Assembly (NCBI GenBank): GCA_963965975.1
Contig: OZ014411.1
Location: 23,667,249-23,731,248, forward strand
Direction: 5' to 3'
Origin: Xestospongia bergquistia
Lineage: Eukaryota; Porifera; Demospongiae; Haplosclerida; Petrosiidae
DNA: 64,000 bases
Positions 3,322 through 23,606 of the stretch are shown piece after piece. A model generated the notes under the pieces. That model worked only from the letters and a program-made list of their open reading frames with translations. It had not been told where the DNA came from and ran no database searches. Both the position numbers and the translations under genes were made by a program. How positions within the stretch are numbered: the stretch's first letter is position 1; each line of letters opens with the position of its first letter.

Positions 3322-4275
3322 TTAGATTTGGGTATCTTGATTCTCTTCTAAATGATCCTGATTTTCCTTAGGTTGTGGGTGCATTTCACTTTGCTCTAAA
3401 ACAATATAATAAATAAAGAACTAAAACATTTAAAATAATAACGAAATTATCAAATTTAACCATCATTATAGTCCTTACTTATTATACAGAATTATGGTCT
3501 GCATTTTAATGCTAAATCAAAATGTTTACTATTATAGGTTGAAGGTTTAAAATTTGCAAATTCTCCATTATATTCATTAATGTAAGATCAGCCATGTGTT
3601 TATAAGTAATCAAAGTATCTTTGTGTACCCTCACATCTTTTGTTAGTAATAATATAACAACAATGTCCTTACATATGACAGTGTTTTAAACAAAGTACAT
3701 ACATAGTAAAAAATAAAAAAAATTGAAAATTTATTACCTTCCTGATTTGAATTATTTGGTACATAATAAATATTTTGTATTGTTAAGTTATCAGTTTTGA
3801 CACCACCCTCCTTAGGAAAAGGATACTTCTTAGCCTTGGTAAATTGTTTACTAAAAAAATTAGGAAAAATATGTTATTATTTAGTTAGATGGATATTGAT
3901 TTCATTTAATATTACTCAGAAGAGGAAAACTTGGCATGGCATAATATGATTGTATTGATTTTATTATGAAGTGAATGCTTGACCAAATTCAAAAACATAA
4001 TTGCTGATAGCCTCAGTAACAAATTACATTAGTATACATGTCACATACAAAATGAAAACTAAAATAATCAAGTACTTACTATAAAATAAAGACAAGTATA
4101 AAAACGAATAGAGTAATCAGTAGAATACCAACAAATGAACCAATGACAATTCCAGCAATAGTGCCTTCTGAAAGACCTTTGTCAGTTGAAGTAGGTAATG
4201 AGGATGAGGATAAAATGCTTGTTCTAATAACTTTGTTCATAGAGCTTGATAATATAAATGAAGATCCCAGGTCTT
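3322..4275 (-). CDS. Gene 1 transmembrane and cytoplasmic exons
   Basis: Exons 4275-4080, 3850-3738 and 3395-3322. A Ser-rich juxtamembrane segment is followed by a helix ([20 protein letters not shown]) and a basic stop-transfer (YKQFTKAKK). The tail carries NIYYVP and ends ENQDTQI. The TM exon runs open to a stop at its own donor, TA|GTAAGT. Splicing gives Tyr and continues the frame. The gene 5 tail keeps the motif as NIYYEP. Confidence 0.75.
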
Positions 4276-22200: not shown

Positions 22201-23606
22201 TTATATCAGTCAATGTCTGGCAGTTTATATACACATTTTTAATAACAATGACAATAACATATTCGTATATTATACTTCTATAATGCTTAGAGGAAGTTAC
22301 CTGTAATGTGCAGTAGACAGTTTGCTGTTATATCTCGTAAACTAAAGGGCAAATTATTGTAGTTTAGTACATATTTTAAAGCATCTTCTGTTAGTTTTTG
22401 TGTGATCTCAACTGGAGTCAGTAGTGGTTGTTCCTGTAAGTATAGTGCTATTGCACCACTAACTAAAGGAGTAGCCATTGATGTTCCAGATAGAGTTTTT
22501 GTACATGTACATGAATTGCAGCTATAATCAGCTCCTATAACATCAGAGCCAGGAGCAAATATATTAACGCAAGAACCACCATTTGTAAAAGAAGACACAT
22601 CATCTCCTCGAGCAGAGCTCGCAACAGTAATAACTCCTGGTGCACTTGCAGGACTACGATAACAGGCATTTCCTCTATTATTGCCAGCAGCTGCTACAAT
22701 TGGAATTCCCACATTAACAATATTGCTCAACACAACATTAACTGAACTAGTATATGAACCACCCAATGACATGGAGATAATAGCTGGAAGACGTGGGTTT
22801 TTACTGGTGATGTTTGATGCAGCAGAATTAAGTCCATCTATAATAACACTCCATGGTGCTGAACCACTACATCCTAATACACGAACACTGTAACAGTTAG
22901 CTTTTTTGGCAACACCATAATGTTTTCCACAAGCAAGACTTGCTACATGAGTTCCATGTCCATCACAATCTCGACCTTTTCGGTTAGTTCCATAGTAGTT
23001 GTCAACTGGGTCATATCCAGTATATATGGCTCTATGATTGTCAAATTCACAGTGATCATAATTAATACCTATTTAATTTTAGACATCAACATTCAAAGTA
23101 ATATGTTATTACAACAATACCTGTGTCAAGAATGTAGATATCAACACCTTCTCCATCTCCTCCAGGTTCAAACATATTATCTAATACTGGACTGACTTGG
23201 TCAATACGATCCAGTGCCCATGAAAGTGAAGCTTTAGCAAAAGTTTCTTCTTCAACAAACTCAACATTGTCAAGATCTTTTATCTACAAAACATAATACA
23301 CACACATACAGATTATGGATATAAATACACAATCTTTATAAGGCTAACCTTATGTGCTTCATCAACTGACAGCTTTGTCACAATTATTTTACCAAATGGA
23401 CTCTCCATTTTGTGCATTTCAGAATTAAATGACTCACTTTGAATTTTTTTAGCAACAGCTTCAAATCTTTCATGGCTAGTATCAGGTGTCAGTACAACCA
23501 TATACTGACCTGTTGTCTCAATTCCAGGAGCAGCACGAATAACTCGACGTGCTTGTACAACGGTTGTTAAGAGAGGAAGAAGTGAAAATAGAATTTGAAA
23601 TTGCAT
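3322..23606 (-). CDS. Gene 1: subtilisin-(NIDO)x4-Ser/Pro-NIDO-AMOP-vWD-EGF-TM receptor
   Basis: Spliced minus-strand gene reconstructed by eye from GT-AG sites and splice phase. Thirty-nine deduced exons total 8064 nt, giving about 2687 residues from the ATG at 23606 to the stop at 3324-3322. Order: signal peptide, I9 propeptide and S8 protease (residues 1-396); NIDO-A (397-636); three further NIDO cassettes separated by Ser/Thr linkers (to 1418); Ser-Gly linker; Ser/Pro-rich region; NIDO-E (to 1757); AMOP (1758-1898); vWD (1899-2089); link region; seven EGF-like modules (to 2560); one transmembrane helix (about 2599-2625) and a tail of about 60 residues. The C-terminal half resembles vertebrate MUC4. 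A protease on its N terminus is unusual. The weakest join is the 3.2-kb intron between the S8 exon and NIDO-A. The alternative is two genes, with a separate start at the ATG near 19147, but its short hydrophobic leader is a poor signal peptide. Gene 5 has the same ends. Confidence 0.7.
4365..5692 (-). CDS. Gene 1 EGF-like repeats
   Basis: Six exons: 5692-5537, 5489-5361, 5309-5187, 4985-4854, 4689-4567 and 4502-4365, all phase 1-1. The first completes one EGF-like module and adds another ([15 protein letters not shown]). Four of the next five start with the calcium-binding signature DIDEC or DINEC ([32 protein letters not shown]). The fifth starts VDPNRKC. They form a rigid stalk next to the membrane. 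Confidence 0.85.
5729..5798. repeat. TA microsatellite
   Basis: Alternating TA tract inside an intron of gene 1, absent at the matching place in gene 5. Confidence 0.9.
5818..6589 (-). CDS. Gene 1 post-vWD link region and first Cys module
   Basis: Exons 6589-6338, 6276-6017 and 5917-5818. The first encodes the region after vWD found in MUC4-like proteins ([28 protein letters not shown]). The second encodes a beta-rich segment with several N-glycosylation sequons and [15 protein letters not shown], resembling an Ig- or cadherin-like fold. The third starts an EGF-like module (CGCHNGGNC). Confidence 0.65.
6685..7318 (-). CDS. Gene 1 vWD domain with GDPH motif
   Basis: Exons 7318-7098 and 7036-6685 (191 residues). 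It opens with [24 protein letters not shown] and FELQARTT, and ends with [10 protein letters not shown] and FGQS joined to W by the next exon, the usual close of a MUC4-type vWD. The GDPH tetrapeptide is the autocleavage site known from several mucins. This exon pair and its introns are almost identical to 51862-52495 of gene 5. Confidence 0.85.
7738..8249 (-). CDS. Gene 1 AMOP domain
   Basis: Exons 8249-8024 and 7934-7738 (423 nt, 141 residues). The Cys pattern fits AMOP: CPCQL early, ISGVCCYN, then [16 protein letters not shown] with FCYNVSPF at the end. AMOP is an extracellular adhesion-associated module found in MUC4 and SUSD2 next to a vWD domain, as here. Confidence 0.75.
8594..9586 (-). 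CDS. Gene 1 NIDO-E domain
   Basis: Exons 9586-9448, 9121-8907 and 8843-8594. Motifs: [43 protein letters not shown], then [36 protein letters not shown] and FTNIVYYF. This NIDO domain directly precedes AMOP, the order found in MUC4. It is distinct in sequence from cassettes A-D and matches its gene 5 counterpart. Confidence 0.8.
9650..9981 (-). CDS. Gene 1 Ser/Pro/Glu-rich mucin-like exon
   Basis: A 332-nt exon with a strong pyrimidine-rich acceptor. It encodes short repeats of the type SPSPSLxSSEEAS, then a Cys-containing segment ([11 protein letters not shown]) that leads into the NIDO-E fold. Probable stalk. The gene 5 counterpart (55362-55966) is longer, so the repeats vary in number between copies. 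Confidence 0.7.
10300..10380 (-). CDS. Gene 1 Ser-Gly linker exon
   Basis: An 81-nt phase 1-1 exon encoding 27 residues dominated by Gly-Ser dipeptides. Such Ser-Gly runs are possible glycosaminoglycan attachment sites (inference). It joins the NIDO array to the Ser/Pro-rich exon. Confidence 0.65.
11082..11852 (-). CDS. Gene 1 NIDO-D cassette
   Basis: Exons 11852-11701, 11650-11363 and 11313-11082 (152, 288 and 232 nt), phase 1-1. The NIDO motifs are intact ([39 protein letters not shown]). It is more diverged than the B/C pair. The last exon ends AATAAAG|GTAAGTT and splices in frame to the Ser-Gly exon at 10380. Confidence 0.8.
12480..12593 (-). CDS. Gene 1 Ser/Thr linker exon 3
   Basis: A 114-nt phase 1-1 exon, near-identical copy of 15195-15308, with a probable spacer role between NIDO-C and NIDO-D. 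Confidence 0.7.
13520..14297 (-). CDS. Gene 1 NIDO-C cassette
   Basis: Exons 14297-14146, 14088-13801 and 13751-13520, the same sizes as in NIDO-B (152, 288 and 232 nt). Ser-Gly start, NIDO motifs as in NIDO-B, phase 1-1. It has CPFGN where the other copies have CPYGN. Confidence 0.8.
15195..15308 (-). CDS. Gene 1 Ser/Thr linker exon 2
   Basis: A 114-nt phase 1-1 exon of 38 residues rich in Ser and Thr, ending PTQTVIL. It is almost identical to the linker at 12480-12593, as are the flanking introns. Confidence 0.7.
15607..15737. repeat. TA microsatellite, about 130 bp
   Basis: Long TA tract in the intron between NIDO-B and its linker. The sister copy has only about 26 bp at 12871-12896, so it has expanded since the duplication. 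Confidence 0.9.
16362..17139 (-). CDS. Gene 1 NIDO-B cassette
   Basis: Exons 17139-16988, 16930-16643 and 16593-16362 (672 nt, 224 residues), symmetric phase 1. A short run of Ser-Gly dipeptides precedes [11 protein letters not shown], followed by a complete NIDO domain ([52 protein letters not shown]). It is very close to NIDO-C in exons and introns, which marks a recent tandem duplication. Confidence 0.8.
17599..17700 (-). CDS. Gene 1 Ser/Thr linker exon 1
   Basis: A 102-nt exon, phase 1-1, encoding 34 residues rich in Ser, Thr and Pro and ending in the motif PTQTVIL. Probable O-glycosylated spacer between NIDO-A and NIDO-B. Homologous linkers occur at 15195-15308 and 12480-12593. Confidence 0.7.
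18301..19122 (-). CDS. Gene 1 NIDO-A cassette
   Basis: Exons 19122-18923, 18868-18581 and 18532-18301 (720 nt, 240 residues), phase 1 in and phase 1 out. It opens with a Ser-Gly-rich linker ([12 protein letters not shown]) and then a nidogen-type NIDO domain: [41 protein letters not shown], then [20 protein letters not shown] and WSNVVYNL. The pattern of an APFWDD strand and a final SNVVY segment is typical of NIDO. NIDO domains are extracellular and take part in matrix or cell-surface contacts. This is the most divergent of the four cassettes and is closest to the one in gene 4. Confidence 0.8.
19123..22300 (-). other. Long intron of gene 1 (S8 to NIDO-A)
   Basis: No coding exon is supported here. 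Parts match the corresponding intron of gene 4 (44493-45772), for example 20640-21017 against about 45110-45295. Homology is lost at 21018-22203, where gene 4 carries a different segment of about 390 bp. A TA tract lies at about 19458-19525. This is the least certain junction of gene 1. Confidence 0.5.
19458..19525. repeat. TA-rich microsatellite
   Basis: Interrupted TA/TACA tract in the long intron of gene 1. Confidence 0.85.
22301..23606 (-). CDS. Gene 1 exons 1-3: I9 propeptide and S8 subtilisin domain
   Basis: Exons 23606-23349, 23283-23121 and 23068-22301. The start at 23606 gives a hydrophobic signal peptide ([19 protein letters not shown]) followed by a dibasic RR. An inhibitor_I9 propeptide comes next, containing GQYMVVL. 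The peptidase S8 domain is of the proteinase K/PCSK9 type: Asp139 in ILDTG, His178 in GHGTH, oxyanion Asn270 in AAGN and Ser337 in SGTSMATP. The phrase [11 protein letters not shown] is shared with PCSK9-like enzymes. All catalytic residues are present, so it should be active and secreted. The last exon ends at a CAG|GTAACT donor in phase 1. Reading through it would stop after three codons. The same donor position is kept in all five family copies, which argues that the protein continues downstream. Confidence 0.85.

What the first reader, a model, noticed from the sequence alone, without database searches (positions are those of the whole stretch)
3322..23606. A subtilisin fused to a MUC4-like membrane receptor
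The S8 exon joins in phase to four NIDO cassettes and then to a NIDO-AMOP-vWD-EGF-TM module. The 39 deduced exons sum to exactly 8064 nt with every junction in phase. Known MUC4/SUSD2-type proteins have no protease domain, so a receptor carrying its own secreted-type subtilisin would be a new architecture.
Basis: partly seen in the sequence, partly recalled or inferred. Interest (0 to 1): 0.9.

Follow-up and report, generated by a model that had tools for sequence, protein, structure and literature searches.

The report
Subtilisin-headed MUC4-like membrane protein gene
A gene in this animal genome appears to encode a cell-surface protein that carries an intact subtilisin-type protease at its tip and a MUC4-like module with a membrane anchor at its base, and it belongs to a large, fast-changing gene cluster in which the same protease exons sit ahead of several kinds of adhesive modules.

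Summary
The 39-exon model on the minus strand, 23606-3322, was rebuilt exactly: 8064 nt, 2687 aa, all introns GT-AG and in phase. Pfam supports S8, NIDO, VWD, MUC4-type C8-3 and EGF; AMOP is not significant.

The window's 146 Mb genome allowed fusion to be tested by comparison.
- The S8 exon ends in the same phase-1 donor in 30 of 30 loci read, gene A included.
- In 4 of 4 distant paralogs read, that end is a stop codon; the donor rows form one side of a branch, support 94/93.
- On two other chromosomes the donor opens introns of 53 and 77 bp, leading to a Thr-rich and a CUB exon.
- Genes B (65258-48570) and C (L031) also have S8 ahead of a MUC4-like module.
- An S8-less relative on C3 starts with its own signal-peptide-like exon; a scan found none in gene A's S8-NIDO intron, a weak negative.

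One fused gene is well supported but unproven by transcripts. A conserved GDPH site suggests a tethered or shed ectoprotease; its role is inferred.

The parts
23349..23606 (-). Gene A exon 1: signal-peptide-like start [13 protein letters not shown] and propeptide
   Evidence: I9 propeptide only weak, Pfam E 0.039, 15.1 bits against a cut-off of 21.2; PCSK9 match starts at query residue 32
23121..23283 (-). Gene A exon 2: end of propeptide, catalytic Asp (ILDT)
22301..23068 (-). Gene A exon 3: S8 catalytic exon with His, Asn, Ser
   Evidence: PF00082 2.8e-43; residues kept in 29 of 29; phase-1 donor in 30 of 30 loci
19123..22300 (-). Intron between S8 and NIDO cassette 1 (3178 bp); no signal-peptide-like first exon found by a hydropathy scan
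   Evidence: shuffles of this intron give 0.8 candidates on average, so the absence is weak evidence
18301..19122 (-). SGSG linker and NIDO cassette 1 (exons 4-6)
16362..17139 (-). NIDO cassette 2 (exons 8-10)
13520..14297 (-). NIDO cassette 3 (exons 12-14), near copy of cassette 2
   Evidence: 97.1% identity over 1434 aligned bases with the cassette 2 stretch, introns included
11082..11852 (-). NIDO cassette 4 (exons 16-18)
10300..10380 (-). SGSG linker exon 19; genes C and D have a similar linker as the first exon seen after S8
8594..9981 (-). Ser-rich segment and fifth, divergent NIDO domain (exons 20-23)
   Evidence: PF06119 2.8e-15
7738..8249 (-). AMOP-like Cys-rich segment (exons 24-25), not significant
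6685..7318 (-). VWD domain with GDPH motif at about 7307
   Evidence: PF00094 4.1e-12; GDPH in 5 of 5 modules looked at
6017..6589 (-). C8-3 MUC4-type region and following spacer (exons 28-29)
   Evidence: PF23263 3.2e-10
4365..5917 (-). EGF domains (exons 30-36)
   Evidence: PF07645, PF12662
3322..4275 (-). Transmembrane segment and short cytoplasmic tail (exons 37-39)
   Evidence: sequence only; tail copies at genes A, B, C, D and on C3 and C12
48570..64000 (-). Gene B inside the window (starts at 65258, outside): S8, seven Cys-rich SMB-like cassettes, NIDO-like, AMOP-like, VWD, C8-3-like, EGF, TM; 44 exons, frame open. Domain names by similarity to gene A; gene B was not scanned with Pfam as a whole
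43680..47078 (-). S8 gene copy L002: S8 exons and one NIDO cassette at 44492-43680, followed by gag-like and protease-like pieces
38700..41788 (-). S8 gene L004 followed by linkers and two SMB-like cassettes
27900..30338 (-). S8 gene L007 followed by one SMB-like cassette; the linker exon after it shows no donor, probably truncated (by eye)

Best explanation
Gene A (23606-3322, minus) is one gene. It encodes a type I membrane protein of about 2687 aa with a secreted-type, proteinase K/PCSK9-like S8 protease at the N-terminus, a stalk of four NIDO cassettes, and a MUC4-like NIDO, VWD, C8-3, EGF and TM base. Shown by sequence: the exon structure, the intact catalytic residues, the conserved donor where the stand-alone S8 paralogs that were read have a stop, and further genes with the same head and base. 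Inferred: the S8 clade gained its downstream exons when a stop at its C-terminus gave way to a splice donor, after which phase 1-1 cassettes were duplicated and swapped in a tandem cluster. Inferred: the protease matures by removing its propeptide and is displayed at the cell surface. Inferred by analogy with MUC4: cleavage at GDPH in the VWD domain would leave an S8- and NIDO-bearing alpha part held on, or shed from, a VWD-EGF-TM beta part. The role I think most likely is an adhesive ectoprotease that acts on other cells, microbes or matrix.
For: Exact 39-exon frame. Pfam domains. GT donor at the same phase-1 site in 30 of 30 loci read, gene A included, out of 67 S8 matches in the genome, against an in-frame stop in 4 of 4 distant paralogs read on C5, C7, C8, C12 (a fifth near-full one, C8:4367522, was not read). 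The 29 donor rows form one side of a branch, support 94/93. Same donor followed by a 53-bp intron to a Thr-rich exon (L028, C13) and a 77-bp intron to CUB (L029, C10; CUB 6.9e-14) (lengths counted). Compact C1 copies: S8 to NIDO about 640 bp (L010) and 900 bp (L011), S8 to a Thr-rich linker exon about 570 bp (L013), each with a phase-1 acceptor. Gene B in frame; gene C mapped by tblastn with no NIDO or SMB-like cassette found; gene D with S8, linker, EGF and TM exons. No S8 match lies on C3, where a relative of the base begins with a signal-peptide-like exon. 21 of 25 minus-strand S8 places on C1 have a module before the next S8; the plus-strand S8 L023 is followed by NIDO on the plus strand. 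Catalytic His, Asn, Ser in 29 of 29 and Asp in 29 of 29. GDPH in 5 of 5 modules looked at; putative MUC4 cleavage at GDPH read in passages of PMC8660890.
Against: No transcript or protein data. The S8-NIDO intron of gene A is 3178 bp. The signal-peptide scan is a weak negative: shuffled copies of the introns give 0.8 (gene A), 0.3 (L002), 0.3 (C) and 0.5 (D) candidates on average, and a more permissive scan finds one weak candidate in genes C and D. In 4 of 25 C1 S8 places no module was listed before the next S8, though the SMB-like list was cut at 150. All cassettes being phase 1-1 makes phase agreement alone a weak test. On C13, L025 and L027 have longer introns than L028. AMOP is not significant. 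The propeptide alone matches PCSK9 only at E 0.34, behind RNA-binding proteins. The tree has long branches and no firm root. Cleavage, surface display and activity are inferred.
Confidence: 0.75

Rival explanations
1. Two adjacent genes: a secreted S8 protease, perhaps with a short unseen terminal exon, and a separate NIDO/MUC4-like receptor, duplicated together as a pair.
For: The intron is long in gene A. S8 paralogs that end in a stop exist in the genome, and an S8-less MUC4-like gene exists on C3. A weak signal-peptide-like candidate lies in the introns of genes C and D.
Against: 30 of 30 loci read end in a donor. Introns of 53 and 77 bp at that donor in L028 and L029 leave no room for a gene boundary. 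No signal-peptide-like exon was found in the introns of gene A and L002, a weak negative. Gene D keeps S8, linker, EGF and TM exons after a deletion.
Confidence: 0.12
2. One locus, two products: intron retention or intronic polyadenylation after the S8 exon yields a soluble protease, and splicing yields the membrane form.
For: An in-frame stop follows the donor within a few codons in gene A (ITGNFL*) and at varying distances in the others.
Against: The stop position and the sequence after the donor vary among loci, so nothing shows that such an end is maintained.
Confidence: 0.25
3. The genes are decaying copies and the architecture makes no protein.
For: Some cluster members are truncated or interrupted: L002 is followed by gag-like pieces, L007 has lost a linker donor (by eye), the first linker of gene B has no acceptor (by eye), and partial S8 pieces with stops exist.
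Against: Genes A and B are open throughout. dN/dS of the base exons compared is about 0.36, catalytic residues are kept in 29 of 29, and the median S8 dN/dS is 0.40 over 367 of 406 pairs.
Confidence: 0.08

Closest known systems
MUC4 (membrane mucin with NIDO-AMOP-VWD-EGF-TM)
   Same: NIDO, VWD with GDPH, MUC4-type C8-3, EGF domains, TM and short tail in the same order
   Different: S8 protease head and four extra NIDO cassettes; AMOP not significant; Ser/Thr/Pro-rich linkers but no large mucin tandem repeat seen in gene A. That MUC4 lacks a protease domain is recalled.
Proteinase K / PCSK9 group of S8A subtilases
   Same: Best PDB matches are proteinase K-like enzymes (2.1e-57) and PCSK9 (2.1e-55, match from query residue 32); catalytic residues kept
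   Different: Those are secreted proteins (recalled); here the S8 domain continues into an adhesive stalk and TM
Furin-type proprotein convertases with TM
   Same: S8 protease tethered by a C-terminal TM; sponge examples in PMC6850559 (passages)
   Different: They have a P domain and furin repeats; no such match in the two pieces of gene A given. By best PDB matches this S8 is proteinase K-like
SUSD2
   Same: VWD with an AMOP-like neighbour and TM; gene B has SMB-like cassettes (SUSD2 domain order recalled)
   Different: No Sushi match in the pieces given; NIDO and S8 present
Nidogen
   Same: NIDO and EGF domains
   Different: No G2F, thyroglobulin or LDL-repeat match (nidogen features recalled); membrane anchored; S8 present

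Membership tests
MUC4-like | NIDO domain | tested here: met
   PF06119 3.6e-31 and 2.8e-15; four cassettes over cut-off
MUC4-like | AMOP domain between NIDO and VWD | tested here: inconclusive
   No Pfam AMOP match in 4 of 4 segments at E up to 10; hhalign E 0.12, probability 0.5%, cysteines in register by eye
MUC4-like | VWD with GDPH site | tested here: met
   PF00094 4.1e-12; GDPH in 5 of 5 looked at, of 6 close VWD modules
MUC4-like | MUC4-type C8-3 domain | tested here: met
   PF23263 3.2e-10, 39.6 bits against a cut-off of 25
MUC4-like | EGF domains followed by TM and short tail | tested here: met
   EGF by Pfam; TM by sequence only
MUC4-like | Large Ser/Thr-rich mucin tandem repeat | tested here: inconclusive
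   Only short Ser/Thr/Pro and SGSG linkers seen; no glycosylation test
S8A proteinase K/PCSK9-like protease | Catalytic Asp, His, Ser and oxyanion Asn | tested here: met
   29 of 29 full exons; L030, partial, left out
S8A proteinase K/PCSK9-like protease | I9-type propeptide | tested here: inconclusive
   Pfam E 0.039, below cut-off; PCSK9 match of the full query begins at residue 32; propeptide alone E 0.34 to PCSK9, and better scores to RNA-binding proteins
S8A proteinase K/PCSK9-like protease | Proteolytic activity | not testable with these tools
   needs expression and assay
SUSD2 | Sushi domain | tested here: not met
   No Sushi match in the two pieces of gene A given to (cassettes 2-4 not given)
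Furin-type convertase | P domain | tested here: not met
   No such match in the two pieces given
Nidogen | G2F domain | tested here: not met
   No G2F match in the two pieces given

The most novel reading that the evidence does not exclude
The C1 cluster is a diversified family of surface proteases: one S8 head on stalks of exchangeable NIDO and SMB-like cassettes, some on a GDPH-cleavable MUC4-like base. It would be used for self/nonself or microbe recognition, the cassettes giving specificity and the protease giving the effector or signalling step.
Probability: 0.2. Interest if true: 0.88.

Novelty: new variant of a known kind. Interest (0 to 1): 0.64.

Why it matters
Membrane mucins of the MUC4 type are not known, to my recollection, to carry an enzyme. 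A relative with its own protease at the tip would suggest that such proteins can cut what they touch. The stop-to-donor contrast gives a clear genomic record of how a stand-alone enzyme may have become the head of many multidomain surface proteins. The cluster, with near-identical cassettes, is also a testable candidate for individual variation in cell recognition.

Tried and rejected
AMOP by single-sequence Pfam (4 segments; gene B's not given) and by comparison with this genome's AMOP exons (7 of 10 fetched loci used, C-terminal half only): not significant. Somatomedin B by Pfam on the Cys-rich cassette: 0 matches at E up to 0.1 and E 0.37 to 2.2 on three versions; the genome-wide Pfam search finds 5 matches, none in the cluster. 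It is called SMB-like by cysteine pattern only. The VWD and TM searches showed that most C1 S8 genes lack the VWD module, so the full architecture is that of genes A, B and C, not of the whole family. Genes C and D were mapped by tblastn and read by eye, not modelled exon by exon. Searches read the loci in the wrong orientation and were redone. Papers: search listings only, except passages of PMC10280926, PMC8242945, PMC6850559 and PMC8660890, and a find without match in PMC5450542. No structure prediction or fold search was run.
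Full report
Observation. Pfam, given two pieces of the protein (cassettes 2-4 left out), finds S8 (2.8e-43), NIDO (3.6e-31 for cassette 1, 2.8e-15 for a fifth, divergent one), VWD (4.1e-12), C8-3_MUC4 (3.2e-10) and EGF families. The genome-wide NIDO search scores pieces of all four cassettes over the cut-off. Against 7 AMOP exons of this genome the profile comparison gives E 0.12 and probability 0.5%, with the cysteines in register by eye. I call it AMOP-like.

Setting. The window lies at C1:23667249-23731248 of a 146 Mb genome in 21 contigs. The S8 exon has 67 matches there at E up to 0.001, many of them partial. On C1, 22 near-full minus-strand copies and one plus-strand copy lie between 23.52 and 23.90 Mb. 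Mapping the NIDO, SMB-like, VWD and TM matches shows that 21 of 25 minus-strand S8 places, three partial ones included, have at least one module before the next S8; six stop-bearing or tiny S8 pieces in the region were left out of that count, and the SMB-like list was cut at 150 matches, so absences are not firm. The plus-strand S8, L023, is followed by NIDO on the plus strand.

Is the S8 exon really joined to what follows? Adjacency of two genes duplicated as a pair would also give this map, so I looked at the junction. In 30 of 30 loci read (gene A is one of them; L030 is partial) the S8 exon ends in a GT donor at the same phase-1 position, while the sequence and the first in-frame stop after it vary. 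Four more distant S8 genes, on C5, C7, C8 and C12, instead end in a stop at the homologous place, 4 of 4; three of these are close copies of each other, and a fifth near-full one on C8 was not read. In a tree with two proteinase K-like sequences the 29 donor-bearing rows form one side of a branch, support 94/93. The tree has long branches and its root is for drawing only, so the direction stop to donor is inferred.

The donor leads into other exons at very short range elsewhere: 53 bp to a Thr-rich exon in L028 on C13 and 77 bp to a CUB exon (6.9e-14) in L029 on C10 (lengths counted from the printed sequence). L025 and L027, also on C13, have longer introns to a similar Thr-rich exon. On C1 the distance is about 640 bp to NIDO in L010, 900 bp in L011 and 570 bp to a Thr-rich linker exon in L013, each with a phase-1 acceptor. 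A hydropathy scan found no signal-peptide-like first exon in the 3178-bp intron of gene A or the 1280-bp intron of the L002 copy. This is weak evidence, because shuffled copies of those introns give only 0.8 and 0.3 candidates on average. A more permissive scan finds one weak candidate in genes C and D, and it recovers the signal-peptide-like exon of the S8-less relative on C3.

Several genes in the cluster have this layout. Gene B (65258-48570) has S8, seven SMB-like cassettes and the MUC4-like base, 44 exons in frame; exon 25 was cut short and corrected to 623 nt, which makes the coding sequence 7881 nt. Its first SGSG linker shows no acceptor and was left out of the model. Gene C (L031) has S8, one linker and the base, mapped by tblastn. 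Gene D (L034) is close to gene C (95% over the first 1.86 kb) but has lost the part between the linker and the last EGF exons. Linker lengths differ by multiples of three (111 and 93 nt in C and D; 200 and 188 nt in the first NIDO exons of A and L002). Only three VWD modules of this close type lie in the cluster, so the complete architecture belongs to a minority of the S8 genes.

Constraint. The catalytic His, Asn and Ser are kept in 29 of 29 full S8 exons and the Asp in 29 of 29. Median dN/dS among S8 exons is 0.40 (367 of 406 pairs with dS 0.1-1.5); two of the youngest pairs exceed 1 on few changes. Between the bases of genes A and B, 16 of the 20 exons were compared: 16 of 16 have equal length, dN 0.042, dS 0.117. 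Of the four left out, E38 is equal and E20, E37 and E39 differ by multiples of three.

How it may work. The S8 head is closest in the PDB to proteinase K-like enzymes and PCSK9. The propeptide is only weakly like I9, and on its own it matches PCSK9 at E 0.34, behind RNA-binding proteins. The base carries GDPH at the start of VWD in 5 of 5 modules looked at, of 6 close ones. In MUC4, putative cleavage at this site gives an alpha part with NIDO and AMOP and a membrane beta part (PMC8660890, passages). By analogy the S8 head would sit on the alpha part. Activity, cleavage, surface display and role are inferences; adhesion-linked proteolysis or recognition fits best.

Known or new. The held library has 0 papers with NIDO, AMOP and subtilisin together; in the listings of the other searches I saw no such protein. 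Protein sets of other animals could not be searched. I rate it a new variant of a known kind: a domain-shuffled membrane protein with a MUC4-like base and an unexpected enzyme head.

Noticed in passing
window 25300-27300, + strand: Exons resembling SRCR domains and a TM segment lie between S8 genes, with a stop inside one reading; seen by translation only, motif recalled.
   Followed up: partly
window 43370-42377, - strand: Gag-like and aspartic-protease-like pieces (Pfam 0.018 and 0.00052, both below cut-off) after the NIDO cassette of the L002 gene.
   Followed up: partly
window 31500-34060, - strand: Several overlapping ORFs of a possible mobile element; 3 pieces scanned, no Pfam match over a cut-off.
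   Followed up: partly
window 33896-34450, + strand: ORF with a weak SAM-domain match, 0.009, below cut-off.
   Followed up: no
G000:C1:23614621 down to 23560556: The S8 gene L011 is followed by about 24 NIDO and SMB-like modules over 54 kb before the next S8.
   Followed up: no
G000:C1:23770441-23788232: Seven NIDO cassettes about 2.88 kb apart after S8 L006, five with identical scores, suggesting recent duplication.
   Followed up: no
   Followed up: partly
L025, L027, L028 (C13): S8 followed by a Thr-rich linker and a similar Cys-rich domain; the L025 version has no Pfam match at E up to 0.1.
   Followed up: partly
L029 (C10): S8 followed by CUB (6.9e-14) and a BTRD1 match (1.1e-6).
   Followed up: partly
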